NCBI GenBank assembly: GCA_006384855.1 | Contig: VCJN01000893.1 | Location: 1 to 64,000 of the forward strand | Length of the DNA: 64,000 bases | Source: Tetraselmis striata | Taxonomy: Eukaryota > Chlorophyta > Chlorodendrophyceae > Chlorodendrales > Chlorodendraceae | Reading direction: 5' to 3' | In this document: one piece after another, positions 5,405-63,500 of the stretch | How positions within the stretch are numbered: the stretch's first letter is position 1 | How the letters are laid out: each line of letters starts with the position of its first letter | The notes under the pieces: generated by a model | Told to the model about the DNA's origin: nothing | Seen by the model: the letters and a program-made list of their open reading frames with translations, nothing else | The model's database searches: none | Program-made: the position numbers and the translations under genes

Positions 5405-8400
5405 CTGGGCGCCCGAGGGCGCAATGTGGATGAACCTCGCCGGGACGGGCGGCTGCATGTACGCGGAGATGGCCGCCACGGGCAGCTGGAACGAGCCGGG
5501 GCTGCGCACACATCCGCGGCGGGCAAGTCAGCGTGTCACCCCCCCCCCCCCCCCCCCAAGCAGAGCCGGGGCGGTGCCCGAGGAGGCAAACACGGATCCA
5601 AGCGGGCTCGGCATAGGGGCATAAAGGGGTTTAAGATGGGATGTTTGGGGGGGGAGGGGGGGGGAGAGGGGGGACGAGCTCCCGCCCACATGGGGACGCG
5701 TTTGACGGGTTTGTATTCGAAGGCGGGAACGCGCACTCGGGATGGCGGAGAGGACATGTCTTGCGCTGTCTGTAGTTGGTTCATTGGGCGTTTGTGTTTC
5801 GATCGCACTCCTCCTTGGTGCGCGTACAGGCTGGCGCCCCTGTACGCACGTAGTAACCCGCGTGTAAAATGCTTCTAAACCGGTTACAAGAGGTTTATAA
5901 GGCGGTTATAAGACGTTTCTAAAATGTTTAATTAACGTGTACTAGTTGAACTTTCTTCCAAGTTTATTCCAGCTTGGTCTGTGATGCTAAACGGGCCAGG
6001 TGTCTCACGGCGCGACTACACTGACCCGCACAGGGTCTGCTCCCCCGTTGGGTGGCATTGCGCGTGGCATGCAGTCCTCTGTAAGGCCAATACGTGTACT
6101 GGTGCCATTCATGAAACAATACCACCGAGGTACTTCAACGTTGGCCTACCGAGCCCCCGCCCTACGCGCTTTGATTAGCGGCCCCTACGCGGGTTGGCCA
6201 GGGGCGGGCCCTTCCCTGATGGTGGGTAAGGACAGCTTGTCAAGAGAAAGAAAGAGCTCGATTTAGTTGCAACGAATTGAAATTCAAATTCATATTGGTA
6301 CGCGTGAACCTTGCATATTTCAGGTGAACGTTGAGCAAGTGGGTACGGGAGAGGGGGAGGGGACAGGAGAGGGAGGGGAAAAGAGGGGGGGGTGTCAACA
6401 GGGTCGAGCGATATACGATGGCAAGTGTCAACCATCCGATACCGCCATGGCAAACCTCGGCACTGTCGCGGCCCAGACTGACAGCAGGCACTCCCTGTCG
6501 GCAGGGAGAGGGGGCTGGCAAAGCGTCCGGTCCAATGGGGCGGGAAGGGGCGCGGCCCACCTGAAGGACGGGTTGAGCGCCCCGTCGTACTCAAACTTGG
6601 AGAGCATCAGCTGCGCGCGCCAAGGCGGCACAGTAAAAGCGGAGTCGGCGCAGCTGCCGCATGGCACGGCACGGCACGGCACGTGCTGCCATCACCCCGA
6701 CCGGACTCGTGGTTTATTGTTAATTCCGTCTTCCTTTTTATTGGGGGGAAAAGGGGGGGGGGGGGGGGGTCACCTGCAGCGACACGATGTTGGAGCTGTC
6801 CAGCGGGTCACCATCTGCGGGTGGCACAGCGGTATCAGTGACTCAGCGGGCGCTCACGGCTGCCGGGAGTCGCCGCGGCCTGTGCGGGAGGGCCCCCCTC
6901 ACCTGGCATGGAGCGTGCGCGGAAGACGGGGATGAAGCGCTCAAAGGGCAGCCTCACGTCCTGTGCCGCCGCGCCACAAGGGACGGAGCCGCCGGTCAGC
7001 GGCACGTGCCGTAAGGAGAGGGGATTTGTCAAGGGCTGCGGTGGCGGTGGCCCCTTGCAGCTCAAGACGAGGGACCGGGCGAGTGGGGATCCCGCGGCGG
7101 CCGCCCTCTCACAGCACACTGGCCCTCGATGCTTCTTTGGCAAAATAAGCAGTGAAGGTCGCAACGAACTCACGCTTTGGGTTCGCTATATATTCGCGAT
7201 TTTCCCCTCCGACCCGACTCGCGAAGAGAGTTTTTTGGGGCAGTGTATCGGATTCTGCCGCGAAATTGTACGGATATATCGACCCGATGCTCCCATTTAT
7301 GCATCCTTATTTCATTATCCTAACTTACGTTTCATTTTGAATTGAAAGAGTAAAAAAACTAACCCCTCTTACATACACCGGTTCATTAATCCTTGGAGTC
7401 AGGAGTACATTTTGCGTGCTCCGTGTTTCATCAGCTTGAAGCGGAGCCACCGCCCGTCAAGCGACATTCGGGTTTAGGGTTTAGTATATAAATCAAAATA
7501 TTGTTAAGTCAGAGAGTGTCTCCTACATAGTTACCTCTGGTTTGCGAAACATGCCGCTTGGTACCTTGCGACGGCGATGATTTGGTCACTTTGTTGCCAC
7601 ACGGAGGTGATAACATCAAAAGGTGCCCCGGTGTCATTGAACTTCGTCATCGCACCACCCGATAATATTTCGATGAGCTCTTTGATATGGAGACCGACCG
7701 TTGGCGTGCCTACAACTTATGGTCGTACTATATCGATGTCAGGTCGCGCGTAGATGTCCCCCCCCCCACGGCATCCGCCAACTCATGCAGCATTTCCCAA
7801 GGGATCCATAACCTATTGTCTTCGCATGGTATCGCACATACCAATACGGCAGCAGTAATCCTGCGATCAATCGAATACCGCACTCGCCCCGATATGCTGC
7901 GGGTGCACGGGCACCATGGGCGACCAAGGGCGGGGCCTGCATGTATCTGGTAAGGATACTTACGGGTAGTACAAATAGCGGAATAGCGGTCGTGAAGAGG
8001 TCCCTATATGCACATACGGAATAATGTACCGGTGCATCTCCCGTCAAATACAATGCACACTCCTAGTGCTATCTATATAATCTTACGGGTCTACGAATAG
8101 GAGCGCATTCCATCCTTGGGGGGGGGGGGGGGAGTGGGGGGATTGGTGTTGGTGGGGAAAAGCGACAGTATATGTGCAAAAGCGACTTTTCGGCAAACGG
8201 TCGTAGTTTGGATACCACCACGACCAAAGCACGGCAGCGGGACGGCCATAGCGGCGCATTGGAGCTGCGGAGTGACGGGTCAACCAATGCGGCTCGCAGC
8301 CTCCGACCTGCCACTCGCCCTCCGCGGTGTCGAAGGACTGGCAGTACGTGACGGTGTCCCAATTGCGGTCGGTGCGCAGGATGAACTTGTACCGCTGGCC

Positions 8401-11400
8401 GTCGCCGCGCACGCGCAGGCGGATGCCTGTCACCGAGGGGCGGCAAAGGCGGGACGAGACGGAAGGGGAAGGGGGGGGGGAGGGGAGGGGGGGACCACAC
8501 ATCAGTGGGACAGAGCAACGAGGAAGCTAAAACAGATGCACGCGAGATCAGAGCTCACAATGCTGAGGGTGAGGCACCGCAGGACTTCACTGGTTCCCTA
8601 ATGTCTACGGGGTGCCGGCGAGGTCATAAGAACATTGCGAACAGTAGCCCGCCCTGCCTGCCAGAGAACAAATGTAGACAACACCACTGCGGAACGGTAG
8701 CGACTGCCCTCATAGGTTGCACATGCAAGCCCAATGTGAGGCTCATGGTATGAGGGTTCTTATGGGTGCGTCGGCACCCGTGCCTGTGTGTACATAAAGA
8801 TCGCATGTGATGGAAAGAGGGGGGGAAAGGGGGGGGGGGGGGGGGGGGCAAGCTACTTCCAGCGAAATGCCCCTACAAGTGCATACTTCTGTATTCAAAC
8901 TACCAGTTGGTGGGTACGCAAGGTACCATGAACATTTGAGGTGTTTTGCACAATTGCAGACTTGGCCATCCTGTGATATATTCGTGATGCATTTGTGATG
9001 TTTTAAAAATAAATGCGATCGCGTCCTGAGGGGGGGGCAGCCTGTTTAGACCACACAGGCCAACAACGTCGGGACTTCGGAACGAGGCGAGCGCTTTCCC
9101 GGTCACGTGCAGGAGTCGGATCTTGTTCGGTCAGCGCAACCTGGCGTCGGGTATGTGGACGGTGGCCATCCCCACCGCGAGGGTGGTCGCTTCACGAGTG
9201 TGGCAACAATCAGCAATGTGCAGCGTACCGGGGATGGTTTCGGAAGGGCATGGGGACGGGGCATTGGGACTCGTAAATGGACATCTTGGTGTACGTTGCC
9301 GTATCGGACGACTTAATCATGCATGCAACATTGGGTTATGGACGCGGTGGTATCCTTGGCATCAGCGCGCCGCAACGGCGGACGCCTGCTCGGGTTTGGT
9401 GAGACTCTGGACAGTCGCCGCCGGCTCGGCCGTCGCCCGTGAGCGTGCGCAACTGAGTGCCTGGGCCGCCCCGCCGCACCTGTGTACGCGGCCAGGTTGA
9501 GCGGCGGCTCCATGTTGAGTGTCCGCACGCTGCTGAAGCCGCCGCTGTTGTCCGTGGACACCGTGCCGCTGCGCGCGGGGGGATGGGCACGGGAAGGGGG
9601 GAAGGGGGGTCCGACATTTTTTTTTGGGGGGGGGGGGGTGGGAGGGGGGGTAGCAACAGTGTCAGGTAGGGACGAGCGCGCATCAAAAGGCGCGCGTCTG
9701 CATCTCATGTTGCCGCTGCCGTAAGCGGCTCCTCAGTCCCTTTCCCCCGGCTGGCACCACTACAGGTGTCAACGCACCTACGGGTGCCGGACCCAACCTA
9801 CAAGAACACACCATGCCCAATAGAGCTCAAGTCTAGGCGAAACGATCACGGAGTCATCACGAAGTTCTCATGAATTCGACGGCACCCCTTGGCAGGGAGC
9901 AAAATGTGAGCTCTTCCTATCGCGTCGGCACCCGTGTAAGAACCCATATTTATCATAGCGCACAAGCTGGGCTTGCATGCGGCCTATGAGAGCAGTCGTT
10001 ATAGTCCCGCTATAGTTTGGTTTACATTATGAGCGATGGCAGGCAGGGCGGCCTCTCATCCGCAGCAGTGTTTTCATAATCGCGTCGCCATCCCCTCCTC
10101 CACTTGCCGCCATCTGCCCCGTGGTGGTGCGAGTCCATGTGGAGCCAAGTGATCTTGGATCACGTAAACTTCAGAAGAGAAGTTCCACACAGCAACGCAA
10201 TTGTAACTGGTAAACCTGTTGGTATTTTAGTGGTACTTTATTGGTGGGGTGGTTACGCGCACTAGGAGGTTAGTGCATTTAAGGCAACCTTCGTCAGTTT
10301 ACTCCTCATTGGCACGCTTCCGTGTCACCACCTCCGAATGTGGGCGGTGTCGCTGTGACCCAAAGATGCGCTTCATTTGAATTGACGTGTGCAAGTTGCG
10401 GTGATAGGCTAAACTCCACTGCACATAATCAAAGTAATTTCCAAGCGCTACGTAACAATGAAGCTGGACTACTGCTTTGTACCCAGGCCGAACCCTGGAC
10501 TGCACGCACTCATAGTCCGCTAGTTTTGGACTAGTGAACTATCGGGCGGATCGAGTCGTTGGCATTTGACGGGTGGGGGAGGGGGTGAGGCATCGGGCGA
10601 TGGTGTTCGATGCATCCACACGCGATTGTACCCACTGCTCTGACGGTGTGGGGACCACCCCCGGCACGGCAGGGGAGGACATAATGAGCGGTATGGAAGG
10701 AGGGGCGAGAACAAAATGGAGGATGGCCGGTAGCTACACCCACAATCCCTAGGGTTCACACGGCGGGTGGATAAAGCAGGTCCTATAAGCGACCCGGCTT
10801 GAGCAGTGGAGAGCAACGAGTCAGCACGTTATAATTCAATTTCAATTTTAGGGTGTATGTACTGGGCACCCATGAGATACACTGCGCCATTGAATACCCT
10901 GGTCGCTGGTCATCCAAAAAAGCAGTGACATGCTCAGCCATACCGATGCGTCGGAGTACCTGTCGCGTGCTCGTGCTGGCATTTACGAGAGTTAAACCCT
11001 AAAAACCCTAAAACCCTAAGCCCACATTATGATAGATTTCAAGGTAGTGTTTCTTCTCCCGCCTTTGGACGGAGGGGTTATTCCAAAATGACGATACACC
11101 GCGAGCCCGATTCTCCAAAGCACAATGGGTTTCGGGAAGGCACGTGCACTACATCATCGCATACATCCTGACGCCGACAATTAGGGGTCACCAATTAGGG
11201 GTACTTAACGGAACCCTGACACCAAAATACAAAACGTTATTAAGCATCCGTCAGTCAGCCCGAGGCGCCGGAGGGTGCCTCCGTCGCCGCGCACCGGAAC
11301 AGCGCCGCCGGCGCGCCGCCCTCACCGGCGCCGTCCGCCAGCTCCCAGCGGCCGAGGCTGCAGCCGCCCATCACGACGTCGTCCAGCGGCGCCCAGTCCA

Positions 11401-12091
11401 TGCGGAGCGCGTGGTCGGACGCGTCGAACACCGCCTGTGCAGCGGTGCAGCACGTCCGTCGGTGTGGCGGAGGGTCAAGTTAGGGTTAAGGCGGCCCCCA
11501 GCTGTTCCTGGCAATGGCGCTCGCGGCTACAGCATGCTGCTGTCTCACTTCTTCCACACACATACTCGTCACCATGACCTGTCGATCAATGTGCGCAGAC
11601 TGGGATAGGGTGCCAAGACTTGGGAAGCCGATCTCGCGGGTGGCATCGTCGCAAATTAACCGCACTCAGTCGGTGCAGTTCTCCAGGGGGAGGAAGGAGG
11701 GAGAGAAAGGGGGGGGCGGGGGGTAGCTACAGAGACAATTGGAGGCGTTGGCGGATGCACGATCATGAGTACAACTATAATGGCGTGTAACCGAAATGCC
11801 GTACGTTAACCACGGCATGGGTTGATTTGTCACTCGCTATGTATTGCTGTGGTGATGAATCTCGGCCACCTCATGTTCCCTGTGCGCCCCCGCGGAATTC
11901 AAGATCCCCCTCTCTCTCTCTCTCTCTCTCTCTCGCTCTCTTGTAGAAGGAGCAGGGGGGCAGAGAGTGTCGCCAGCGGACTACACTAACCAAGCAACGG
12001 GCCGGGTCACGTAGGTGTCGGAGTGTGTGCGCAGTTCGTAGCTTGGTGGGGCTCTGCATGATGATTCACATTTTTCGCTCAGGTAGGAAGA

Positions 12092-12123
<32 letters not shown>

Positions 12124-15100
12124 GCGCACCTGCCCCTCGAGGCAGCCCAGCGCCCGCGCCGCAGCAGGCAGCATTGCGCTGAGCACCTGCAGGACAAAAG
12201 AGGCGGCGCACATCAGGGACGGGCGCGCACATCAACGCCGCCATACTCATCCCCATCATGAGCTCTGAACTTTCTATGTCATAGATGGTTCAGATCCGGG
12301 TGCCGGCGCGCCTATAATAAGAATCCATATTATAAGCCTCACGTTGGGCTTGAGCACACCCGAGAAGAAAACGCGCTATAGCCCCCTCATGGTTTTGTCA
12401 GCAATTCACCACTGGCAGGCATAGGGCAGGCTCATCCGCAGTGTTCGGTTTATATAGAATGGCCACTCGTGCTTCTGAGTGTGTCCGGGTGCCGGCGAGG
12501 CAATGAGGACAATGCAAACAAGGCACTGCCCTATGCTTGCGAGGGGTCAAATGCAGACAAACATTGCGAAGATATTCTCATAGGTTGCATGCAAACCTAG
12601 TATGAGGCTTACAGCAGATTCTTAGGCGTTCCGCCAAGTGGAATGCCGTTGTGCCCTACAACCACCTACAGCTCCATGTAAGGCTTCCCTATTGCTCCCT
12701 CTCTCTCTCTCTCTCTCGGTTTTTATCGGTGTGTCTGCACCCGTGATGACTGAATGCCCGCCCTCTGCCGTATTAAAACAGGCATGTGGGTAAAGTATCG
12801 GCAACGGCCATGGCTCAGCAACACCCGCGCACGGTGAGCTCGATGGGTCAACACGTGTATCGAATGGGGCCAACGCTCTGCTGACACTGCCGGAGGCCAG
12901 GCACGCGAGCTGTGGCGGCAACCGGTGGGTCCGCTTGATGTCTTCAAGCAGCAGCATTGGGGGGCGCGGGGGGCGAGAGGGGGGCGGCGGAGTGTTGGGA
13001 GTTGTCGCCCCTACCCGCCATTCCACCGGAACTGCTCTGATTAACCGCCGCGCTTGACCGTGCTGTTATAGGCAGCGCAGATTCCTATGTCCGATGCGAT
13101 CCGGCCAATATAGCGGTCATGAACATGGACTCAAACCAAAGGACGCAGAAAAGACGTAGGCGCAGATGACAATGTAGTGGGTGGTGGTTTGGGATCTGGT
13201 ATTGCGTAGTGGGGAGGCAGACCGGTGTGCCCCTACGGGTGACCAATAGCGGATCCGGCCAATATAGCGGTCAATTAACATGGACTCAAACCAAATGACG
13301 CAGAAAAGACGTAGGCGCGGCTGATAATGTGGTGGATGGTGGGTTGGGATCTGGTATTACGTAGTGGGGAGGCAATGTGGCACCTCGGTGTGCCCCTACG
13401 GGTGACCCGTGTGGCGGCGTGCATCGAGCGTGGCGTTAGAGCAGCAGCCGGGGATCCGTGGGTGGCTGGCACTCATGGGCCCAGAGAAGGAGGACGGGAG
13501 AGGACGCTGGCGGCGCACACAGGAGTCTAATAATCGGTGGGGATATCAGGCGTTGGGGCAGCTCAGCCGGACTGGGTTGGGTTGGGGTGCGTGCGTTTGA
13601 AGGGGGAGGGGGGGGGGGGGGGGGGGCACCTGGGGGCCGCCGCAGTTGATGGCTGACCGCACCCCGCTGAGCATGGCAGCAGTCGGCGGGGAGCTGAGGT
13701 CAGCGGCAACGAGCTCCAGGCCTCCGCCGGCGGCTGCCTGCGCGTCAATGTGCCGAGCCTCAATACCACAGTCCCGAGCGGAATGCCCTCCATTAGGCCA
13801 TATGTATATATAGAATATATGTATATATGTGTACAAATATGAATGTATGTATAGAGGGGGGTCATGGTGTTGGCGTACGCAACAGCAGCAGTGGCTGCAT
13901 GCAGATTGGCGCGCAAAGGACAACACACAACGGGGACAGTTGACCCTATGCGAGTCCACAAAGACGCGTGCGAGGCTATGCAAAATGCGAATATTATTGG
14001 ACTGGTATATGTACGATCATCTCAAATCTAGTATCACTCCTTATCAGAACCTAGATACTAAGGAATGAAGTCAGAATTGAAGTCACGCATAGGAATGAAG
14101 TCATGCGTGAGGCTATGCAAAATGCGCTTATCATTGAAATGGTATATGTATGATTGATCTCAGATAATATCATCTTTCACCAGATCCTTTATGCTAAGGA
14201 ATGAAGTCACGCGTAGATGCGCGAGAGGGTACGCAAAATGCGCATATCATTGGACTGGTACAGTAATACCCTTTATTGATCTCGGATATTAATCATTCTT
14301 GCGTGGTAACCTCGGGCGGACGCGAGGCGTAGACAGGCCGTGACTTGGCATGAAAGGCCTTGGCTGGGCGTTGTTCAAGGTGCTGCACGCGCACCTGCAG
14401 GCCTTTCAGCTGCTCCTTGGCGGCCGCGACGTCCCGCACCAGCCCACGCACCTGCAAAGGGCAGTTTGGAAGCGGGGCAACTCTGTGAGCTACCCTGCAA
14501 TAACATCGAAATCACGGTATCCGCTCCCCACATGCAAGTCAGCCAGCACGGACAGCGGCTCTCCCAAACAACGGTGCCGGCTGCAGCAGGTCACCAGCCC
14601 CAGGTACGACAAGTTTGCCATGAATCCCTGATTGCTTCACTTGCTCCCTGTCTACGCGCGGCAGTCACGCAGGGGCCGCCACAGCACTGCTATGGCGGGT
14701 GGCGGGTGCGCTCAGCACGCAGCCCCGCCTACCTGCTTCCCCTCCAGCAGCAGCCGCTGCACCACGCGGCGACCCAGTGGCCCCGCCGCGTCTGCCACCA
14801 GCACGAGGGGTGTCCCTGCCGTGGCTGGGTCGAAGGGAGGGGAAGAGAGGGGAACATGCACGCGCGCGGAGGGCGGGGGGGCAGGTTCAGCTGCGAGGCT
14901 CTGCAATGGCGTTGTGGCAGCGGCTGACGGCCAAGGCGCAGGCCATTACGGGGCGATGGGCAGAGCACCTACCTGGCGATCCGACGACCGCTTTTACCGC
15001 CTCGGTAGCTTGCGCCTGTACCCCGCGGAATATCAGCATGCTTTATTGTCGCAGAGGCGCTTGCTTGTATTACCTATGAAAAATATAGATGCATATGGTC

Positions 15101-19309: not shown

Positions 19310-20894
19310 GCTGCTTGAAGTACTGTCAAGCCTGTCGCGCTGACTGCATCATCCGATACAATCCCAGCCCTCGCACTCCCGACCTACACAACCCTTCCGC
19401 GCACACATGGAACCGACCGCTCATCCGCCCCGCGCCTGCACTGCCATGCTTATGTAGGCGTGACAGACAGGACTGTAAGTTATCAATGGCACCTGGGTCC
19501 CTGCTCCAATAATGGCCTTGCTCGGTCCCCTCCCCCCCCCCCCCCCCCGGGGAACCCCTGGTCTTCTCCCCACCGGCAGCCGCCCTCCTGTCTGTCCCTG
19601 CGCCGCGCAGTGCCGACCTCCCCCTTTGTTGCGCGGCCCCGCTATTTCACTCCCAGCCGGTTGGCTGGCTGGCTCCTCATATGCCCTGGGGACGGGGCGA
19701 GAGGTTGTGTGTGTGTGTGTGTGGGGGGGGGGGGTGTGGCGGGGGGGGGGGGGGGAGGGGGGGGGGCATCATGGCGCACCTGCTGCTCGTCCAGCAGCGC
19801 CCCGAGGTCGCCCCGCTCCAGCCCGGCGCAGCGTAGTGAAACTAGCTCTACCTGCGTGCGGGATATGCCATCGTCAGACCGGCGGGGGCCCAGCGGGGCA
19901 ACCAGGGGTGGGGGAGAGGAGGCTGGAAGGGGGGAGGAGGTTTAGTATGGGGCACCATGCGTTCCATGACGCTGCTGACCACCGTCTCCGTCTCTGTCGG
20001 CGGCTGCACTGTCGCCATCTGGTCCACAAAGCGCAGCACCGTGCTGGCAGTGAGGGAGCTACGCGGCGCCGGCGCCGCCGAGGCTTTGCCCGCCGCCTCT
20101 GCGGGCCGCTCAGCCGGCCTGTCTGGGGGCCTGTGAGCCGACAGCGCCCGCATCGCAGCCGCCCCTACTGCCGTGGCGACCTGCGGTGGCCGCTCGTGCT
20201 TCATCGGCCCAAAGAGGGCCACAGCTGCGGTGGCCGTCCCGCGCCCGGCGTCATCCCCCTCTGCCGTGCCCCCCTCCCCGCTGAGCTGGCGGCCTCGTGG
20301 GCTGGACAGCAGCTGGGCGTAGTTGGGGCGCGAGGCGTAGGGGGTGCGCTTGAAGGACCTGCGTGCGCGATGCAGGGATGCGATATGGGGGGTTCAAAGG
20401 GCGAAAGGGCAAAGGGCGAACAAACCAGGCCCGCAGCGCGGCGCTTGTCTCGGTAAACGCCCCGCACGGGGTGCCGACGCGGTAATAAGAACACTGCGAA
20501 ATAAAAACTTGTCCTACCTGCCGTCATCCCGCCTCGCCGTGCTTGCCCCCTCCCCCCCCCCTCCCCCCCACCATTGCACTACCTCAGCAGAGCGGAGCGC
20601 TTCCTCCCCCTGGGGGGCCATCCCACCCCAGGAGGAGCTGGCAAGCCCGCGAGCCCGCCGCCACCACTGCCGTCGCCACCAGCACAAACGAGCAAGCACT
20701 GCCAGACAAGCACGGAAAAAGAGTACCCCGCCAGATTATACACACGCAGGACGACTCGGCAGCGTATTAATCTTTGCCGGGGGGGGGGGGGGGGACCTGA
20801 GCGCCGTAGACCCTCCGGCTCCAGCCACGCTGTGCGCGCGGGACTGGCTGTACGGCCGGTCGGACAGGCCCATGAAGCTGTCCCAGTCGCTCAT
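17763..20894 (-). CDS. Complete six-exon gene for a 430-residue protein of unknown function
   Basis: Exons (minus): 20894-20797, 20666-20583, 20358-19956, 19851-19780, 19107-18594, 17884-17763. They total 1293 nt (430 codons plus TAG) with every splice phase closing, which strongly supports the model. The protein starts MSDWDSFMGLSDRPYSQ. Next comes a Gly/Pro and basic part with RSFKRTPYASRPNYAQLL, then RFVDQMATVQPPTETE, a short predicted coiled coil (VELVSLRCAGLERGDLGA and EQKQAEQQRVAGKVKKML), a long Ala/Arg/Ser-rich low-complexity tract, an aromatic patch DFSYPGFAYATGNFYTI, and a charged tail VLDVVRRQNETVKNEKIRRR. No signal peptide or membrane segment is seen. The start is the first ATG in frame. 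Poly-C tracts follow the first and fourth donors. I do not recognise the family. Confidence 0.8.
20466..20530 (+). mobile_element. Small TIR element, left-end fragment
   Basis: ACGGGGTGCCGACGCGGTAATAAGAACACTGCGAA matches the left end of the family; the rest is lost. It sits in the second intron of the 430-residue gene. Confidence 0.65.
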
Positions 20895-32817: not shown

Positions 32818-35800
32818 ATGGCAAGCACCAGCTGCTGCTGGCGTGCCGCCGCCGCTCGCTTGTCCTGCGCCGCTACGCTGCGGCAGGTCGCTTCACGGCC
32901 GGAGGCTATCGTCCCCCTCGTCACACCGCTGGTGAGTGTTCAGTCAAGTGTAAAGTGGTGGGCGACGTGGGGGCAGCCGTCCCTGGCAGCGGTCCAGAGT
33001 GGCTGGCCGTGCGAGCGCCGTGCCTTCCACGGCTGCCCCCCCGGCTTCGCAGAGCTGCAGGAGGAGCTGTCCAGAGCCTCGACAGCTCAGGCAGTGGAGG
33101 GCACCGTCGAAGCTCACCTCACTGGAAAGGGCGGCGAGGGTCTCACAGCCGCGCAGGTCGGCTTTGCCAACCCCCGCGTGGCCTGTGCGGTGCCAGAGCG
33201 GTTATGCGCACACTGCAAATATGACCCTACCCTGTACCTGCCAGCGGGCAATTTTATACGAAACAAAAATACTGAAGCGGAACTATGGCGAATTATCTTA
33301 CCGGTTGCATTCAAGCCCAATTCAAGACTTATATGATACGGGGTCTTATGGGTCCGTCGGCACCCGTGGTGGTGCTTCTCGCTGCCCTGGGAGTGGGCAG
33401 CCAGTTGGGGATACTGAGGTACTCAGTGGGCTGAGTGGAGCTGCGCCTGCGTGCTGCGCCTCAGGCAGCGGCGGTGCTGCAGCGGTTGGCGCAGCTGCCT
33501 GCCGGCGCGGGGGAGCGGGTGGACCCTTCCGCCCCTTTTGTGGCGTCCGTGCTGCAGCGCCTCCGGCGTGCAGGCCCCCGGGAGCTGACGTCCCGCGAGC
33601 GGGCGGCCGTGGTGGCGTCGCTGGCGCAGCTTCAGTCCGGCAGCGGGGGCATCGGCATGCTGCTGGAGGCACTGGTCTCGCATGCGCTCGGCAGCGGCTT
33701 GCGGGGACAGGACAACGCGGGCCCCTGGGCACAGGGCGGCTTGGCTACCGAGCTCACTGCCCTGCTGACGGTGCGTGCCACCCCACTCTCCCGGGGCAGG
33801 CGACCACTGCTCTGACCACCGGCATCTATTCCTCACCGCCGGCGCGTGGCTGTCCCCGCCGCAGGCGCACGCGCAGCTCAATCACCGCCCTCGCACGGAG
33901 CTCCTGCAGCACGCCAACGCACTACTGCTCAGCGGGGCGGCCACCTGCGTGGGGGGCGACCCTGGCCCCGAGCTGCGCTCCCTCGCGGAGTCCGCCGCGG
34001 CGCTAGGGGGCAGCATTGGTCCGGAGCTGCTGGAAGCCTTGGCCGCGGCGGGCGCGCATGCGGAGCTGGGCCCGGGGCCGGAGCCAGACCAGCGCGCAGG
34101 CCTGCTGTGGGAAGCCGCCTCGCTTGCCGCCGAGGCGCCGCGGGCGTTTGCCGCGCTGCTGCAGCCGCTGAAGTTCCAGCTGGCGCGGCTGCGGGCAGAG
34201 GGGCTCCAAGCCGTGGGCCGCGCGCCGCTGGCATTGCCCCCGTCCGACGATGTGCTGCTGCGGGCGCTTGAGGCCGACATGGGCGGCATCAAGGGGGACC
34301 TCAGTGCGCCCGCGCTGTGCGACGCCGCGTGGGCATTTGCCACCCTGGAGGGTGGGCGCCGGCCAGCGCTCTTTGACTTGCTGGGACGAGAGTTGCTGGC
34401 GCGGCCGGGCGCGCTGCCCTCCCTTAGCAACGGCAGTCTGGTCAGGCTGTTGTGGGCTTTTGGCCAGGTGCTGCCTCCGCACTGCGGCATTGTCCCCCCC
34501 CCCCCCCACACACACACACACACACCCTCGCCCGCAGACAAGGTCTTGTTTGTTATGCTGGCACCCCGTTGCCTGAGCCATTTTGTTCCTCTCTGCGCAG
34601 GCCCGCCACCCCGCACACGATCTCTTCACCGCGGCGGTTCCCGAGCTCCTGAAGCGCAAGCTGTCGCTGTCCGCCCTCGCGGAGGTGCTCTGGGCATATG
34701 CGCGGGTGGGGCACCGCACGGCGGTGCTGTACAACACGGCGGAGCGCATGCTTGTGCGCAGCGGCGGGAACATCAGTGCGCATGCGCTGGCCGCCATGGT
34801 GTGGGGCTTCGGCCACAGCGGCTTCTGGTCGCCCCCGGTCCTGCACTTGGCGCAGCAGCAGGTGCAGCGGCGGCTGCCAGAGTTCCAGCCATGCGACTTG
34901 GCACAGGTCCGACCCCCCCCCCCCCCCTTCCCCCCCCTTTCCCCCCCTGGGACTCTCGCCTAATCTGCCTTTTCCCCTCACTAGAATACACATACACATG
35001 TTGCCGATGCGCCAACAGGGACATCTGTGGAATGGTGTACAGTGCCGGTAGTGGTATAAGCATCAGCGCAACAGCACTAACCTGCGGCGCGCGGTCGGAC
35101 GCAATGCTTTGTATTATTTATGGAGTGGTATATAGCTTAACGATGCTCGCTGCGCGCGCGATGCAACTGCTTGAACTACTGTACATGCGCGCGAAGCTAT
35201 ATGATCCACCGCGGGCGTAGCGACTATAGTGTACTCGCGCGTGGTAGCCAGCATCGTCGTAATACACCCCTCCACATAAGTCCGGGTTCTGCATTTTCGA
35301 TCGCAAAGCGCATGCATGGCGAGGGTAACGCCGGCTGCATGTGCATACATGCTAACTACAGTGGGAATAGTTCGGGCGAACGCCTATTGTGCGCTTTATA
35401 CCCACCCGCGCGACAACACGACCATTTGTGGGCGCCCTTTAAAGAACGAGAAATCGGTGCATGACGAGTTGGCGCCGGAAAATTGTGGGTGGCGCCAACC
35501 GTCGAAACCCATGGAAATAGCGGCACTCGTCGCACCAAACTCGGTGAATACGGCCCTTGGCATAAAGTTGCACACACCGTGCGTGTAGGCCACTGAAAGC
35601 ATGTCGCTATAGGCACGACGTGACACCCCAACGACAAGTTGGCCACTGTGGGGAGCAGTTTTGGGGTGAAAATGCTGCTGTTTCTGTGGCGAACGCACGT
35701 AGGAGAGGCGCTCGATGGCCCCCTTGGCGTAGGGCGATGCTCTACTATGGGGGCGCGTGGTGGAATACCAGTTGCACCGTTTCGTGGGCGGGGTGGCGCG

Positions 35801-40125: not shown

Positions 40126-43100
40126 ATGGAGGCAGCCGCCGCGGGTCAACAGACCTCGCCCCGGTCGCTGCTGGTGGAGGCGACGGAGGCGCACGACGCG
40201 CTGGTGGGCCTCCTGCCGGCGCCCGCCCTAGCGGCGCTTGCCTGCACCTGCCGCGACCTCCGCCACGCCGCCGCCCACAGCCCCGCGGCCGCCGCGCGCT
40301 GGCGGGGCCTGGCGGAGGAGGCGCTGGGCCGCTCCGTCGCCGCGATGCACGAGGCCCTGCTTCGTCATGCCGGGAAGGAGGGCGCCGCCGGTGCGCCGCC
40401 GGACGGCGGTGTCGCGTCGGCGAAGGCAAACAACCCCTTCGCCGCCCGAGCTGCCTTCTGGCGCTCGTTGTGCCGCTCGGCGGCCATCTGCGAGGAGCTC
40501 CACTGGAGCGACACGGGAGCGGCGAGGCTATGGAGCTGCGTGGATACCCCCAGGCGCGTCATGGGGAGCAGGGCGGGCGGAGGGGTTGGTCCCGGGGTTG
40601 CGCTTTAACCCCCCTCCCCTTTCCCTCTCAAGTGCAGATCAGCTCAGCCGAACGCCATCGAAAATGAGCAGATGAACCCTATAGTCGGTTCAAAGACTTG
40701 ATGTGCCTTGTGACAAGCAGCCGGTACACAAGGCCTTTGCTGGGACATAAGCGAGAGACAAGTCGCAGATAGATAAGGCGTATCTCTTGGGCGTGTTCAG
40801 GTAGCCTTGCACATATATCTCTGCCTAAGCCTTCTGCGTGAGAGCAAAGACGACTCCGGTAGAGCTTCCGGTACCGCTCATATGAGATAAGTGAAATCGG
40901 ATGAGCCTTATCGAAATAGGCGATACATATTCAGATAAGCGCCGCCATGGTTGCTGCCACCTCGTAAGCCTCCACGCCATCACCTCCCTGGGGACACCGC
41001 TCCTCCTCTGCTCGATTTCTCCTACCCCCCCCCCCCCCCCCCCCCCGCCCCGCCGGTGCCATTCAATTGTTTTCGCCCTCTCCTCACCTCCTGGGTCACG
41101 GAAGCGGAGCCTAGGTGTGCTCTCCCGACTCACTCCGTACCCATTCAGTCGTTGCGTGAAACTGGTTACCTGGGCAAAGTGGCGGCTTGATTCTGTCCTG
41201 GGGTACTCAGCCTTAATTTCTTTGGCTTGTTCGAGCGCTGAGTAACCCGCCGCTTATCAATAGACTACTAAATGCATTGGGGACTTTACGGGCACCGGCG
41301 CGGAAATAACAACAACGTGGATGAGAGCCTGCCCTGTCTGTCAGGGATCAAATATTGATTCAACTAAAATGGAACCGCAGGAAACGTTGTTGTAGGCTGC
41401 ATGCAAGCCCAAGTTGAGGCTTGTAATATACGGGTTATTATGTGTGTCCACATCCCTATGATGACGACTATGAGCGTATATAAGAATATGTATTAGAGAG
41501 GGAGAGAGAGAGAGAGAGAGAGAGGGTGGGAGGGAGGGAGATCTTTATGGAGCTGTAGGTGGTTGGAGGGCATCCCGGCTGGGTAAACAGCTAAGCCCTT
41601 ATAATACATGTATGTACATATTCGATTATGTGTAACTTCACATGTTATTGCCGAGTGATTTCTTTGCTTGAAATGTGCTCTCAGGAGGGAGACCCACGCG
41701 CAAGTGTCGTCTTCGTCGGGAGGGGAGGAGGGCGGGGAAGGGGCGGCGCAGTGCGACCCGGAGGCGGGGCCAAGCTCGGAGGCGGAGGCGGACGCGTGGC
41801 AGCAGCAGCAGAAGCAGCGGCGGCAGCTGAGAGCCCGGCTGGCGCGGTCGGGGCACACCTCGACGCTACTGGACGAGATGGGCCTCCTGGTGGTTGTGGG
41901 CGGCCTCATGGACGACGAGGGCGAGGAGGCAGAGTCGGCGCACGGCGAGAACGGGAACACACCCATCAGCGTCCTCATTGTCGGTGAGCCCCTCCCTCCT
42001 CCCCAACACAAGCACCCTGCCTATGCCCTCCCGTGTCATCCCTAAGCCGCTGGGGATATTCTGACGTTATGCCCCTTCCCCAATTCCCCAAAAGGCGTCT
42101 CTCGAATGAGTCACGGGAAACTCCGCCACTGGCCTCAAATGAGCCTTTTGGAATGTCCCTCGGTGTTTTGCTTGATGACTTTAGCGGAGCTGGCTCCTAA
42201 ATTGGGCGGTCCCTAATGGGGTTGCGGCTCCAGTACGGCCCATTTCTAGCCCCGGAGTGGTGGTGGGGGGACAACGGCAGTATACTATGAAAGACGGCAC
42301 TCTACACACCTCCACAAAATGATTTACACAAATAATTAACACCTGTAACACCTGAGGCGGCAGTCGCCACTTCACCGATGATCAGTACTAAGATTCAGTA
42401 GTACGAATTCATTTATATACCACTCCACAAATATCAAGCGCACTCGCGCGACATTGATTGGCCCCTCACCACCCCTTTCCCCTTGTCGTTGCCCCTTACG
42501 CCGTCTCCCCCCCCCTCCCCTCCCACCTGGCGCCCAGGGCTTCCCTCTATGCAGGTTAGCGCCCCAGTGGTGGAGGGCCCCAACCCGGCGCCCCCTGCGC
42601 GCTACCGCCACGCCGCCGCCCGCGTCCCCCTCCGCGCCCTCGGGTCCCGCGAGGTCGCAGCCCTCGTGGGCCCCCATGGCAGCGCCGACGACCTCGCCAG
42701 CGGCGCCGTCGTGGCGCTGCACGGCGGCTACCACGGCAGCACCGTCTACGGGGGCCTGCTCCTGCTGTGGGTCGGCCCCGGTGGCGCGCGTGTGCGCTGG
42801 GCCGAGGCAGAGACCCTCGGCGACCCGCCGCCCGCGTGCTTCCACCACACAGTGATCCCGCTGCGCCGCTCGCCGGTGCTGCTGCTTGTCGGCGGCGAGA
42901 CGAGGGACGCACACCTGCCCGGGGGCGTCGTGTACAGCCTATGGCTGCCCACCATGACATGGGAGTCGAAGCCCACGCTCCCCGCGCCAGGGCAGGACGA
43001 TGAGGGCGAGGACGGGGTGCGGCGCGCTACCCCCCCCCCCCCCCCCCCCCCCCGCCCCCGAGCCACCTCCCATCCTATGCTCGCTCCCGCCTTTCATATC

Positions 43101-56432: not shown

Positions 56433-57499
56433 AAAATGGCGCTTCTTCCGTGTAAAACCGACACCGCACCCATTTGGCAAATGTAAACCACACTCGATTG
56501 CATGGATATGTTATTTTGAAATCCACTAATCCTAGTAGGCGCCTTTCGATACGGGTGGACGAGATGGTGGACAGGATATAATGTAACCCGTAAAAAAACG
56601 TACAACACCATCTCGTTTACGCCTACTTCTACGGGCCGCGTGAGTCCCGTATCAACTCGTCGATTGTCGCGAGCGATGGGCATGTTGAAATCGCCCAAAA
56701 TTGCTGATCTCGTCCACCGCTCAGTGGACGAGTTCCTAAAAACTCAGTACTTAGTGCGCTTACATTCACCAATCCATGCTACTACCGCGCGCGCCGCGGC
56801 GATGCCCTAGCATCACTCATCTCCACGCCCGTCAACATCACGCGCGCTGCGCTTTTGCGTCGAGGCTGACGTCGCCCGTCGGTAATTCCGGCCATTCCTC
56901 TCCGTCGCCGCGTGCCATACACTGTCTACTATGCTCGCCAATGTCTCGAGATGGCTGATCGATGCAAAGACGTCCTCGTCGCGTCCTCGCCCAGTGCGGG
57001 CGGTGTCCTTGGGAGTGTTGTCGTCGCAGTCAGTGAGACTGTCCGGCAGCTGTCGAGGGTGTCTAGTGAGCAGCCGCCGCAGCAAGCGCCACCTAAAACC
57101 GGCTTGTCCCCTCAGGCTGCCAGCTCGTCCACGCTGCGTGCATCGGTTCCTCAAGATACGGCAGTGGATAAAGCAAGGGCAGAGCAAGGGCAGCCTCCGA
57201 AATGGCGCCCCGTTCGGGTGATGGCGGCTCCGCTACTATATTTCTTTCGCACCATCGTCACGAGGCGATCCTATCCCAGCGAGTCCGTCACAGCGCGCGG
57301 TATGATTCGCCATTTCATCCTGTCCACCCCAAAATCTCGTCCACCCGTATCGAAAGCACAGCCCGCGAAACGAGGTGGACGGGAAGAATTAAACCCGTAC
57401 GGTACGTTCCCGGGGGATTACACCCTTCCACGTCCACCGTCTCGTCATCCACCCGCGTGTCGAAAGGCGCGTAGTGCAGTACCAGTACCCCGTACAAGT
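56433..57499. other. No gene recognised
   Basis: Holds an imperfect palindromic pair around 56550-56610 (GAGATGGTG.. with CACCATCTCG) and GTGGACGAGAT-type words repeated near 56.70 and 57.33 kb. No coding signal. Confidence 0.4.
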
Positions 57500-58030
57500 G
57501 TGCCAGTCCTGTCCCAGGGGCGGGAAAAAAAAGCCATGGGCGGCTTGTGATAATCTTTTAGCGGTGGATGTGTTACTGGCCTTTTTGAAATTCACACCAC
57601 TGGCTGGGGCTTGCCCAACTCGGAAAACTCGAATGGGAGCCGACGCCCAGACGGGTGGTACCCGTACAGACCTTTTGTGGTCAGTGCCGGATATTTTGAT
57701 GGCGGTGTTTTTGACGGGGATCCAACATTGTTGGGAATTCTATCACAGGTCTTGCAGAATGCTTCGTCAAATTGCTTGATGACCGTAAGGGTTAAGGGTG
57801 CGTCGCCTGCCCAGGCTTTCCTGAATGGCTGGATCGCTGCCAAAATGGCGGTCGTAGGCGAGACGCTGCAGCAAAGGTTTCACTGCTGCCAGTCCTGTAC
57901 TGTCCCAGGGGCGAGGAAAAAAGCAGTGCGCTGTGCTGCTGTCGTTACCCGTCTGCCGTATAGGGTACCTGTACTTTTTTGGTACTAGGTGGATTTGTTT
58001 CTGCCCCTTTTGTAATTCACACCCGCACCA
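57500..58030 (-). mobile_element. Degenerate element related to the 29.5-32.5 kb composite
   Basis: Two copies of GCCAGTCCTGT..CCCAGGGGCG(G/A)G(G)AAAAAA (about 57503-57530 and 57887-57918) bracket about 380 bp. Their complement occurs near 22.37 kb and 30.58 kb. A segment TTTTAGCGGTGGATG..GGCCTTTTTGAAATTCACACCA (about 57556-57600) matches the TIR elements at 30.2 and 32.2 kb. Between them a minus-strand frame (57843-57592, words LTLTVIKQFDEAFCKTC, YPALTTKGLYGYHPSGRRLP) may be a transposon protein remnant. Confidence 0.55.
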
Positions 58031-58395
58031 GTACCTACTGTACTGCACGCCGCGGGATGAAACGCCAGCGCATTCCGCCGTATATCCCGTATTCCAGTAC
58101 CTGTAGCGGAATACGGCGGTGGCAACGTATGGGGATAGCAGCCGCCACTATTGGGAGACCTAATACCGCGGCAGCCCGCGATAGTGTGCTGCAAAGTCTC
58201 AGAAGACCCGCCCTCATCTGTGCTCTTCCACTGCCACCGCGTCTTCCCCTACCGAGCGGGCAGCACACGCCAGCACGTCGGAGCACCGCCGGAACACGAC
58301 CACGCCAGTAGTTTTATGCGGTGTTTCGAATTCATGTACCGTGTAAACTCAGCATAGAAATATCCACACCCTCTCGCACACTGAACTCCGCCGAT

Positions 58396-60540
58396 ATGGC
58401 GTCGCCCGCGCGGTCGCGGCTGGAAGCTGACGCCAGGCCTTTACCTCAGCCGTGGGTGCTGCCTGACAACCTCCTCGAGGCCGTGGTGCTTCGCTTGGAG
58501 CCTCACTGGCGCGGTGTTGTCAAGCATGTGAGCCGCGAGGTAGCAGGTGCGGTGCGCAGCGTGAGCGAGCGGAAGGCGCAGCCCGCCGTGCTGCGAGCCG
58601 GCGCCGTCTGCGGCTCGCTGGATCTGCTCACCTGGGCGATGGACCAGGGCTGCCCCTGGCGTCAGCAGGACTCCATGACCATCGCCGCAGGTGTGTGCCT
58701 TGCCGCTGCTTTCTCTTCCCTTCCTTTCCGGCTCCTGCCATCCTGGTTTAGGGTTGAAGGTTGGGCCCACAGGATATATCCGAGCCAAAAATACGGGTCG
58801 GTAGCTATTTTAATATTTGCAGAAATATATACTTTCGAGGCGATAGATAGGTCGTCGGTAGGCGCGCCGTACTGTATATCCGCATCCCGGGGGTTGGAAA
58901 ACGCACCAAGCAAAGCTGGCCACGTTTTGACTGCGTTACCAGCAGCGAACCGGGTTCGGGCTAGAAGTTGGGCGGAGTTCCGAAGCTAGACGTCGGAACG
59001 AACGACGTCTGCCAGGCTTTTTGCGGTCGTCGGGCGGTTGCCACGAGGAGGTCTACGAGGAGGTGTACCCTACTACCGGCGCGGTATACCGTACCCTGTA
59101 CGGCGGGCGGCAGCCGTAGCGGCAGCCGTAGCGTATTATATCATGCTGCGCGCACGCTGTCGTACGGTAGTACAACTCGTACGGGTACTAGTATGCGGCG
59201 GTACTATACCTACCGGTAGTACGCCGAGCAGAACATGCGCTCTCGTGGAAGTGTCGTCAGGCCGCTGCCGCCCAACTAGACGTCCACCGCTGAAAGGCCG
59301 CCGTGGAGACACCCAGCGTTCACTGATATCTCATATCCCAGGGACAGAAAAATAACAGGTGTTTCCGAGACGCTTACTGTTTTCCTGGGCATGCAGCCGC
59401 CCCGCTGTGATACATACCCGTATGCGTAGCGTCGCTACCTCCTACTCGTGCCGACCAGGATTGAATTCAGTAGGTTGTCGCCTCGGGTAGGTATTAAAGC
59501 GCCTCAGCTGTCGGCCTTATGGCTGCGGGAGCTCGTCCCCTCCCGGCGCTGAGCTTACCCTTAAATACGGCTCGCGGGGTCAATAAATAACGATTTGTTT
59601 TGCGCCTTCACGTCGGAATATTCGTCATGTATTCGTGATATATTCTGATTTATGCATGAGCATTTGCAGTTTTTCCGTTTTCGAGGGGTTCGAAAACATG
59701 TATTTCTCCGCAAACCTTTTGTGTATGTATGGTACTCTACTGTATGCACTGATATGCTGTTGTAGCCAGGCGGCTTCTGGAACGTCGCTGAGCGGCCTGG
59801 CCTTTATGTTATGGCTTGCACCGTCTGGCAGGGCTGGGTGCGCTGGACGTCCTCAAGTGGGGCTTGGCACAGGGCTACCCGTTGGACGAGCGGGCATGCG
59901 CACGCGCGGCGCGCTACGGGCAGCTGGGCGCCCTGCAGTGGGCGCGCGAGCAAGGCGCGGCCTGGGGCCTGGACACCTGCGCCGCCGCCGCGCGCGGTGG
60001 CTTCCTGTCGGTGCTGAAGTGGGCGCACGAGCAGGGCTGCCCGTGGGACGCCACCACCTGCGCGGCCGCGGCGGAGGGCGGCCACCTGGCGGTGCTGCAG
60101 TGGGCGCGTGAGCAGGGCTGCGGGTGGGATGAGGACACCTGCAGCAACGCCGCGCGGCACGGCCACCTCGCGGTGCTGCAGTGGGCGCGCGAGCAGGGCT
60201 GCTACTGGGACCCCAGCACCTGCGCATCCGCCGCTGCGGGCGGCCACCTGGACATCCTGCAGTGGGCGCGCGCGCAGGGCTGCCCCTGGAAGGTCCGCAA
60301 CCCCCTGGCGGGGCGGGTTACAGGGTCAAACCTAGAAACCCTAACACACTGCAGTAATAAGCGCGGGCAAATAGTTTGCCACTATTCTGAAAGCAGTTCT
60401 TTTTTTTGAATGGTCTACACATATTCTAGGGTTTTAGAAGACCTTTCAAACCCTGGTCTGCTTCGACCGAACCTCCATGTCCCCTTTTAGCCCTAGCGCC
60501 GGATGGCCCTCTGCGACCGCACGGAGACTGAACCCTCTGC

Positions 60541-60571
<31 letters not shown>

Positions 60572-63500
60572 AGGTAAGCACCTACACTTCTGCCGTGGAG
60601 AGCGGCCACATGGAGGTGATCGAGTGGGCGCGCGCAGAGGGCTGCCCCGGCGACAAGTGGATCTGCATGCTGGCAGCCAAGGCCGGCAACCTGCCGCTGC
60701 TGCGCTGGGCGCGCGAGAAAGGCTGCGCGGTGAGCCCCCCCCCGTCCCACCCAGCTCATGGCGCCATGCAGGGTGGTGCAGAGCTGGGATTGTGCGGATG
60801 TCACGAGTCCGGGGCTTACCTTACGGCTGCCTGTTCCCCTGCCGCACAGTGGGACGCCGCCACCTGCACCATGGCCGCGGAGACCGGCAACCTGGAGGTG
60901 CTGCAGTGGGCCCGCGCCAACGGCTGCCCGTGGCAGGAGATGACCTTCTCGTTTGCGGCGCGCGGCGGCCACATGGCTGTGCTGGACTGGCTGCGGGAGG
61001 GCGGCTGCCCGGTGGGACCCCAACGCCGACCCCCCCAATGCAGAGCTCCGCTGATACCTCCACCACTCCCTTCCTGCCCCCCCCCCCCCCCCCCCCCCGG
61101 GCTCTACTTCTCTCCCGGCCATCTTTCTCTTATTCCTTTCCGACTCTCACCTCTCCCCCTCCTATCCTTCCTCCTCCTCCCCCCCCCCCCCCCCCCAGAC
61201 CTCAGAAGTCTCCATCCTCCCCCTCTCCTTCCCACGATTTCCGTCCCGGTTCCCCCCTATCCGCCCAATGTCAACAGCGCCCAGTGTATGCTGACACCAA
61301 TCTGCATGCACCGCTGCCAGTGGGACGAGCACACGTGCGGCGAGGCCGCCGAGAAGGGCAACCTGGAGGTGCGGACCGGCGCCATCCACCCCCGCCGAAA
61401 TGGATACAGCTCACCCGGTGCCATTTGGGCTCGGGGTGCAACCCCTCCTTACCCCCCCTCCCCCCCTGGGCCTTTGTCTGCGATGGCGGTCGCGCAGGTG
61501 CTCAAGTGGGCACGCAGCTACAATGCGCCATGGAACGCAGTCACCCTGGCGCGCGCGGCCCGCTGGGGGCACCTGGAAATCGTGAAATGGGCGCGCGCAA
61601 ACGGCTGTCCCGTGAGTGTCCCCCCCCCCCCCCCCCCCTCCTCTTCCCCCCCCCCCCCCCTCCCCCCGCCCGCCCTCTTTTTTCCCTCCCCGCCTCCTAT
61701 CCTGTACTCCTGTACCAATTTCGCTCCACGTCGGTACCCGCTTCCGTACTGGATGGCACCTGTTTCGTCCCGTAGCGGTGCAAAACACCACATTTTGGGA
61801 CAAGCACTTGCCACGCTTCGGGATCGCGATATATTCGATACATTCGCGATATACCGCCCGCCCGCCCCCTCCCCCCTGGCCCCCCCTGTGAAGAGATAAC
61901 GCCGAAATGGATCTCAACGTATATCAGACTACACCGTGGAAAACAAACGGATCGTTTGGTTCTGTGCTGCAATACAGTATATCATTATAACCAGCCGCGA
62001 ACCCAATTAAATGGTACAGTATATAACACCTGAACCCCGACCCCTGAAGTATGCCACACCGGATGAGCCTGCTTGCAATGTACACCAACAGCAGAGCGGC
62101 TGACGGCTGGCTGGCTGGCCTGCGCGCAGTGGGACCGGCGCGTGACCTCTCGCGCCGCACGCTGGGGCCACCTCGCCCTGGTGGCCTGGGCGGCGGAGAA
62201 CGGATGCCCGGTGAGCTCCCCCCCCCCCCTCCCCGCCCGACCTCGGTGCCCCACCGGCCATCACAGCCGCAGCCAAACCCCGCCAAGCCACCAAGTTCGC
62301 CCGCATCCCAGACGTCGCTGCTGCTTCCGTTTCCGTTGCCGCATCTGTTGTTTGTGACGACGTCGTGGTTTTACTTGTCTACCCCGCCGTGCGGGAAGCT
62401 TCACGGAAAGTACTGTTCCGGGGTACGCCATAGCCACGTTTTTGGTTTTGCGGTGTACTCTTTGTTTTAGCCCCGCCCCCCCCCCCCCCCCCCCCCCCCC
62501 CCGAAGCGCCTGCCCACCCCGCGCAATGAAGCTAAAAGTGTATTTGTCTCGATGTTTGGGTGCCTGAGGCTTTTACTAGAATACTGTGAACGAGAGCCTG
62601 TCCTTTGCCTGCCAGGGGTCAAATGCAAGCAAAACTACCGCGGAACGGTAGCGAGTGTTCTCATAGGTTGTACATGCAAGCCCCATTTGAGGCTTATGGT
62701 AAAAGGCGTCTTATAAGCGAGTCCGCACCCGCATCTAATGACTTTGCACATGCTGATGTACGAGAATGCAGACTCGATGCTGCAAAACAATTCTGCCTCC
62801 GGGGCGGGCAAAACCCGCACAGTGTTTCGCTGCTCGCCACCATGTTTTCTGCTGTGTTGAGGTGGGAGTGCACGCTGACGGTCCCCCCCCCCCCCCCTCT
62901 GGTTTGGCCCAGTGGGAGGCTGACACCCCGGAGGCCGCAGCGCTGGGCGGCCACCTGGCCATCGTGCAGTACGCGCACAGCGCGGGCTGCGCCTGGGACG
63001 CCGAGACCTGCGCCAGCGCCGCGCGCTCGGGGCACATGGAGGTGCTGCGCTGGGCGCGGGAGCATGGCTGCCCGGTGAGCCACCCGCCCCCGTCAACGTA
63101 CAATGGTGCTGGCAATGTAGCTGGCGCTCCTGTGTCAAGGTGCACGGGCGATGTCTCTTGCAACCCCCGTTGACACCACACACTTTCCGGACGTGTGGTC
63201 AATCTACCGGGAATACGCTATGTCCTGGATGTCCTTTACGGGTGCCGACGCAATGCCCATAAGAACCCTTATTTGTTATCAGCCTCAAATGGGGCTCGCA
63301 CCCAACCCACAAAAGCATTTGCTGTAGTTCCGCTGTAGTTTCGGCTACAGTTGACCTCTGGCAGGCACAGAGCGGGCTCTCATTCGCAGTGTTCCTATAC
63401 CCGGGTCGGCAGCCGTAGTGGGCAGTTGTCTCCTTTTCAACGATTCTCTGATTTATGACATAGATTAAATGGTAGAAATGCAGCGACCGCCCGGGCAATG

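What the first reader, a model, noticed from the sequence alone, without database searches (positions are those of the whole stretch)
6753..63074. C homopolymers on the sense strand directly after 5' splice sites
At many introns in this window a run of about 9-30 C begins within roughly 4-20 bases of the GT, always C on the sense strand: minus-strand donors at 6773, 12129, 13629, 19779 and 20796; plus-strand donors at 34907, 43017, 60730, 61612 and 62211. The strand follows gene direction in every case I checked, so the runs are not random microsatellites. They may mark an insertion or slippage mechanism tied to transcription (R-loops, G-quadruplex on the template), or be a splicing element (poly-C-binding protein, as in i-motif or hnRNP E-like control). 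It also gives a practical gene-strand predictor for this genome.
Basis: partly seen in the sequence, partly recalled or inferred. Interest (0 to 1): 0.72.

Follow-up and report, generated by a model that had tools for sequence, protein, structure and literature searches.

The report
C-runs hugging intron starts in alga
In this unnamed green alga the first few dozen bases of introns are rich in C on the gene's own strand and often hold long runs of C, which probably reflects a C-rich splicing signal that this genome then stretches by copying slips.

Summary
The genome is an unnamed green alga (224 Mb). In 148 inferred introns, C-runs of 9 or more start at 5.1 per kb in the first 20 nt, 1.7 per kb at 20-40 nt and 0.4-0.7 per kb beyond 60; sense G-runs of that length near donors: none (20 C to 0 G in 40 nt). 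Introns supported by HSP70 homology: 7 of 20 with C7+ (one doubtful), 0 with G7+. Genome-wide, CAGGTG-N4-C12 occurs 1020 times, against 327 for three hexamers lacking the T, 202 with G12, 61 with the C-run upstream.

Enrichment grows from C3 (1.6x) to C6 (6x). Introns without C7 are still C-rich at +13 to +24. C/G runs, not A/T runs, have a second length peak at 15-22. Best reading: a C-rich intron-start element, probably splicing-related, expanded by C/G-specific slippage. It shows no sign of compensating weak U1 pairing. Related precedents exist, but polarity is opposite to mammalian splice-site G-quadruplexes. Function is untested.

The parts
6753..6773 (-). donor at 6773 (CAG|GTGA) and C17 run, inside the CIA30-domain part of a gene model
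12095..12129 (-). donor at 12129 (CAG|GTGCG) and C30 run, same gene model, between its weak NmrA match and its CIA30 match
13608..13629 (-). donor at 13629 (CAG|GTG) and C19 run, same gene model, between its weak NmrA match and its CIA30 match
19723..19779 (-). donor at 19779 (CAG|GTGCGC) and C10/C15/C12 tract; no Pfam match for this part of the model, flanking exons score low
20779..20796 (-). donor at 20796 (CAG|GTCC) and C16 run; flanking exons score low
34907..34937 (+). donor at 34907 (CAG|GTCCGA) and C15 + C8 runs; gene model with a FAST-kinase-like match below the curated cut-off
43017..43053 (+). donor at 43017 (GGG|GTGCGG) and C24 run, kelch-repeat gene model
60730..60743 (+). donor at 60730 (GCG|GTGAGC) and C9 run, ankyrin-repeat gene model
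61612..61660 (+). donor at 61612 (GTGAGT; the gene finder chose 61616) and C19 + C15 runs, ankyrin-repeat gene model
62211..62229 (+). donor at 62211 (CCG|GTGAGC) and C12 run, ankyrin-repeat gene model

Best explanation
Two layers. (1) In this alga the first 40-60 nt of introns carry a strand-specific C-rich stretch peaking about 13-24 nt after the GT. It is a property of introns in general and most likely a splicing element: a C-rich counterpart of the G-rich or U-rich intronic enhancers that other organisms keep beside the 5' splice site, read by a poly-C-binding (KH-type) or U1-associated protein. (2) This genome expands C:G mononucleotide tracts by copying slippage toward a preferred length of about 15-22, so C-rich seeds beside donors grow into the long runs, in the orientation of the seed. 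Shown: position, strand, genome-wide extent, graded dependence on run length, residual C-richness without runs, bimodal lengths, length differences between near-identical copies. Inferred: that slippage is the cause of the long runs, that the C-rich element is selected for splicing, and the nature of the binder.
For: Position and strand; genome-wide counts. Enrichment of first-40-nt over deep intron rises with run length: C3 1.6x, C4 2.5x, C5 3.2x, C6 6.1x, C7-8 6.8x, C9-11 3.7x, C12-17 9.8x, C18+ 7.4x; G-runs of 3-5 show none (0.9-1.2x), G6 2.0x on 3 runs and G7-8 1.6x on 1 run, and G9+ are absent there. Among 92 introns of 120+ nt without C7 near the donor, C = 0.39-0.41 at +13 to +24 against 0.28-0.32 beyond +60. 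C/G run lengths fall off steadily to 8, then hump at 15-22; A/T runs do not. Near-identical copies differ in run length: 18/18/20, 15/14, 12/15 (the last set is not at a CAGGTG). In the ankyrin gene, four donors at equivalent places of repeat units (60730, 61012, 61612, 62211; equivalence judged by eye) have C-runs of 9, 7, 19 and 12, while their introns gave no BLAST match to one another.
Against: No trade-off with splice-site strength: run and no-run donors match U1 equally (4.81 vs 4.77 of 9), and C content of +7 to +40 rises with U1 match (rho +0.23, p 0.005), the opposite of a compensating enhancer. At N17 the GT-specific excess is only 3.4-fold and the mirrored control pattern also rises (16 at N4, 276 at N17). 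No transcript, mutant or protein-binding data. A local mutational bias could give the same pattern. Introns are inferred, not RNA-defined.
Confidence: 0.55

Rival explanations
1. Purely mutational: a transcription- or repair-linked, strand-asymmetric process makes the start of introns C-rich and expands C tracts there, with no function.
For: Intron runs far from donors also lean to C on the sense strand (C9+/G9+ beyond 100 nt: 37 C to 21 G; 28 to 14 in the window). C. elegans introns show such an orientation bias with unbiased position (84 vs 47; PMC2211496, passages). No sign of compensation for weak donors.
Against: The excess drops from 5.1 to 1.7 to 0 starts per kb over 0-20, 20-40 and 40-60 nt, which is sharp for transcription as such; exon ends and decoy AGGT sites show it rarely.
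Confidence: 0.27
2. Tolerance filter: C:G runs arise everywhere and survive only where harmless; sense G-runs are purged from transcripts because they fold into G-quadruplexes.
For: Few runs in exons (8 C and 1 G runs of 9+ in 49 kb, against 113 in 160 kb of predicted intron); sense-G is the minority in introns (79 to 34).
Against: Deep introns should be most tolerant, yet their C18+ density is about seven times lower than beside donors. Intergenic sequence has 12 runs in 55 kb, fewer per kb than introns. Short C3-C6 runs are enriched too. Sense G-runs exist deep in introns.
Confidence: 0.12
3. Inserted elements (introners or retroelement ends) that carry a C-run just inside the donor.
For: Introners are known in some algae (recalled, not looked up).
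Against: All-against-all BLAST of the 148 introns with runs masked (E 1e-5) gave 21 matches, none within 80 nt of a run-bearing donor; introns with and without runs do not differ in length (309 vs 275 nt, p 0.70).
Confidence: 0.02
4. Base pairing: the C-run pairs with G's in U1 snRNA or with a G-run in the same intron.
For: Many runs begin at +4, replacing the usual U1-pairing bases (33 of the roughly 100 places listed, counted by hand).
Against: Both U1 genes found have the usual 5' end ATACTTACCTG, read by eye from the printed loci. G7+ in the intron: 2 of 27 run introns against 15 of 121 others.
Confidence: 0.02
5. Assembly or read artefact in homopolymers.
For: Exact lengths of long homopolymers are unreliable in long reads (general knowledge; the read type here is unknown).
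Against: Strand and position relative to donors are not expected from read errors; short C3-C8 runs and base composition show the same bias.
Confidence: 0.02

Closest known systems
Tandem repeats near intron ends in plants and green algae (PMC3887541; passages and sections 9 and 10)
   Same: [quoted passage not shown] authors suggest a splicing role. In its monocot/bryophyte group the top intron motifs are C and CT.
   Different: In those two algae the intron motif is GT/AC and mononucleotide repeats are very rare (0.94%). Here it is mononucleotide C, one strand, at the donor side.
Poly-G/poly-C tracts of Caenorhabditis (PMC2211496; passages)
   Same: Long C:G tracts, mostly intronic or near genes, G favoured on the non-coding strand (84 vs 47), that is C on the coding strand.
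   Different: Position within introns was unbiased there; here runs concentrate within 40 nt of the donor, where only C was seen on the sense strand.
C-rich intronic splicing enhancers (hnRNP K in chicken beta-tropomyosin as cited there; LCAT and GNPTG introns; PMC2481429, passages)
   Same: C-rich intronic elements near splice sites, one of them near a 5' splice site.
   Different: The LCAT/GNPTG motifs are CCC-type, shown by mutation in single introns, and lie upstream of weak 3' tracts. Here tracts are genome-wide (1020 exact matches at one spacing alone), untested, with no link to weak donors.
G-quadruplexes at splice junctions (PMC9065059; passages)
   Same: G/C runs enriched at 5' splice sites with strand asymmetry.
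   Different: There the non-template strand is favoured at the 5' site (5.56x vs 2.38x), more so at weak sites. Here G9+ runs near donors lie only on the template strand. The paper reports the effect in mammals and birds, not in plants.

Membership tests
C-rich intronic splicing enhancer | C-rich element in the intron near a splice site | tested here: met
C-rich intronic splicing enhancer | compensates weak splice signals | tested here: not met
   U1 match equal; correlation in the opposite direction (5' site only; 3' tract strength not tested)
C-rich intronic splicing enhancer | removal impairs splicing; bound by a poly-C protein | not testable with these tools
   no RNA or bench data
Slippage-expanded mononucleotide tract | excess of long runs over a geometric length distribution | tested here: met
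   second peak at 15-22 for C/G, none for A/T
Slippage-expanded mononucleotide tract | length differs between near-identical copies | tested here: met
   of 20 stretches fetched, 7 fall into three sets of copies (95.5-99.2% identical), each with at least one length difference; assembly error not excluded
Slippage-expanded mononucleotide tract | placement independent of gene features | tested here: not met
[quoted passage not shown]
   0 sense G9+ in the first 60 nt of 148 introns (runs counted; the quadruplex motif itself not searched)
Caenorhabditis-type G/C tracts | orientation bias with unbiased position in introns | tested here: not met
   orientation bias present but position strongly biased
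Introner or transposon insertion | shared sequence beyond the run | tested here: not met
   among 148 introns

The most novel reading that the evidence does not exclude
This alga's lineage uses a poly-C-dependent mode of 5' splice-site recognition: a poly-C-binding protein on the C tract takes over part of the job of U1/U6 pairing at +4 to +6, so donors reduced to GTG followed by C's are functional, and run length tunes splicing.
Probability: 0.15. Interest if true: 0.8.

Novelty: new variant of a known kind. Interest (0 to 1): 0.52.

Why it matters
If the element is functional, it is a 5'-splice-site signal with polarity opposite to the mammalian G-rich one, in a green alga; in Chlamydomonas, introns are known to raise transgene expression (PMC7419008, abstract and passages). 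If it is mutational, it gives a natural assay of strand-specific slippage tied to gene structure. Either way it would help gene prediction beside donors in this genome and marks spots prone to length variation.

Tried and rejected
U1 change: both U1 genes found are canonical. Hairpin with a G-run in the same intron: no co-occurrence. Compensation of weak donors: not seen. Intron families or introners: no shared starts among 148 introns. Acceptor-side runs: weaker. C6+ in the last 45 nt in 11 of 148 introns, G6+ in 1. The genome-wide acceptor count (C12-N12-TGCAGG 242, G12 version 391) does not show a C preference and is confounded, because the G12 version also catches donors on the other strand (e.g. 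...CACCTGCAGG), so I draw nothing from it. Species identity: not settled; an LHCII-type protein points to green algae. No relatives of this genome are held, so conservation could not be tested. Unsupervised k-mers upstream of 134 C9+ runs in 264 kb gave only a modest donor signal (GAGGTG 8 vs 1.2 expected) beside C-rich words.

No earlier report of sense-strand C-runs at donors turned up in the paper searches that bore on it (two searches asked about assemblies and hnRNP K). I saw listings, passages of eight papers and two sections of one of them. Most subscription journals are not held, so absence is weak.
Full report
What was checked. The window lies in contig C706 of an unnamed 224-Mb genome in 2903 contigs. 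Its gene models include an LHCII-type chlorophyll-binding protein, a peptide methionine sulfoxide reductase, a CIA30/NmrA protein, a kelch protein and a large ankyrin-repeat protein, so it is a green alga by inference; the species was not identified. Some HSP70 matches come in identical-score pairs on different contigs, so the assembly probably holds both haplotypes or recent copies, and genome-wide counts may be up to doubled.

The runs. I built a hidden-Markov gene finder trained on HSP70 exons located by homology, with homopolymers of 6 or more scored as neutral and donors scored only at -3 to +3, so that runs could not attract donors. After four rounds it gave 256 introns in 264 kb of genome plus nine HSP70 loci, 148 of them with both flanking exons scoring above 6; the other 108 were dropped before the counts below. 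The learned consensus is CAG|GTGCGC at the donor and CTGCAG|G at the acceptor. The minus-strand model of the window fuses several genes, so some of its introns are doubtful. Donor 6773 is at the cut-off (6.0) and donors 12129, 13629, 19779 and 20796 are below it (3.8-5.9). Donor 6773 lies inside the stretch matching PF08547 (CIA30, E 2e-42), 12129 and 13629 in the same gene model just before it (placed by eye).

Position and strand. Among the 148 introns, C9+ runs start 15 times in nt 0-20 (5.1 per kb), 5 times in 20-40 (1.7 per kb), never in 40-60, and at 0.4-0.7 per kb farther in. G9+ runs do not start in the first 60 nt and occur at 0.2-0.5 per kb deeper; the last 60 nt of the upstream exons hold 2 C and 0 G runs. 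C7+ within 45 nt: 27 of 148; G7+: 1 of 148. The share does not fall with stricter exon scores (20 of 80, 15 of 47, 6 of 21). HSP70 introns whose two ends lie within 30 nt of the homology-defined exon ends: 7 of 20 with C7+, 0 with G7+; one of the seven (L031, 66 nt long) is a doubtful prediction. Decoy AGGT sites show C7+ in 13 of 776 (exon 1 of 131, intergenic 4 of 261, deep intron 8 of 384) against 11 of 62 for AG|GT donors. Away from donors the bias is weak: 37 C to 21 G beyond 100 nt, 28 to 14 in the window.

Genome-wide exact counts, both strands summed: CAGGTG-N4-C12 1020, mirrored control C12-N4-GTGGAC 16; CAGG[ACG]G-N4-C12 327 for three hexamers, some of them CAGGCGAG and so possibly GC donors; CAGGTG-N4-G12 202; C12-N4-CAGGTG 61. 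With N17: 1044, mirrored control 276; 870 for three hexamers; 495 for G12. Scaled by hexamer frequency in the 264-kb sample, GT sites exceed non-GT sites 8.9-fold at N4 and 3.4-fold at N17. The non-GT count at N17 includes cases with a possible donor in between, such as CAGGAGGTGC. So the genome-wide excess is strongest right beside the donor and weaker by +21. Larger distances could not be searched genome-wide.

What the runs grow from. The excess is graded: C3 1.6x, C4 2.5x, C5 3.2x, C6 6.1x, C7-8 6.8x, C9-11 3.7x, C12-17 9.8x, C18+ 7.4x relative to deep intron, while G-runs of 3-5 show none (0.9-1.2x) and longer G-runs are too few to judge (G6 3 runs, G7-8 1, G9+ 0). Among 92 introns of 120+ nt with no C7 near the donor, C reaches 0.41 at +13 and falls to 0.28-0.32 beyond +60. 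Across the sample C/G run lengths decay to 8 and then peak again at 15-22, which A/T runs do not. Of 20 stretches fetched for this purpose, seven form three sets of near-identical copies, with run lengths 18/18/20, 15/14 and 12/15. This supports expansion of C-rich seeds by slippage; assembly error in exact lengths is not excluded.

Mechanism. I favour a C-rich element next to the donor that is part of splicing, with run growth as a by-product. It is inference: no RNA, mutant or binding data exist here. The main result against a simple enhancer is that C content does not rise as U1 pairing weakens; the correlation runs the other way (rho +0.23, p 0.005), perhaps because correctly predicted donors score higher on both. 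Runs often begin at +4, removing the +4 to +6 bases that pair with U1 and U6 (pairing from general knowledge), yet both U1 genes found are canonical.

What is known. In Chlamydomonas and Volvox, tandem repeats concentrate near intron ends, but the intron motif is GT/AC and mononucleotide repeats are nearly absent; in the monocot/bryophyte group C and CT are the top intron motifs (PMC3887541, sections 9 and 10 and passages). C. elegans C:G tracts favour C on the coding strand with no position bias (PMC2211496, passages). A C-rich enhancer near a 5' splice site bound by hnRNP K is cited in PMC2481429 (passages). Mammalian splice junctions favour the opposite strand (PMC9065059, passages). Strand-biased intron repeats are known elsewhere too, with T-rich motifs on the sense strand in Daphnia (PMC3152781, passages). 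The combination seen here - mononucleotide C, only C on the sense strand, tight to the donor, genome-wide - was not found in print in the searches listed under Tried and rejected.

Verdict. Real, strong, genome-wide; ordinary in its parts (C-rich splicing motifs, slippage), unusual in combination and polarity; function unproven.

Noticed in passing
264-kb sample: window and L009-L028: Poly-C:poly-G is the expanded mononucleotide of this genome (second length peak at 15-22); A/T runs of 12 or more are almost absent (2 in 264 kb).
   Followed up: partly
264-kb sample (window and L009-L028), flanks of C9+ runs: (CA)n and A-runs are strongly enriched in the 26 nt after C-runs and do not appear among the enriched words before them, so the tracts look directional as compound repeats.
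   Followed up: no
148 inferred introns, acceptor side: Homopolymer runs in the last 45 nt before acceptors are C rather than T (C6+ in 11 introns, T6+ in 1).
   Followed up: partly
L026 +1149, L029 -1940, and CAGGCGAG hits: Some introns look like GC-AG introns (AG|GCAAG, CAG|GCGAG), some with C-runs too.
   Followed up: no
G000 contigs C825/C2177, C2252/C1893, C1687/C801, C1713/C2315: Equal-score or near-identical HSP70 pieces on different contigs suggest an assembly holding both haplotypes or recent copies.
   Followed up: partly
window; L023, L028, L011: The window shares many exact 31-mers with unrelated sampled contigs (784 with L023, 570 with L028, both strands counted), suggesting dispersed repeats.
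   Followed up: no
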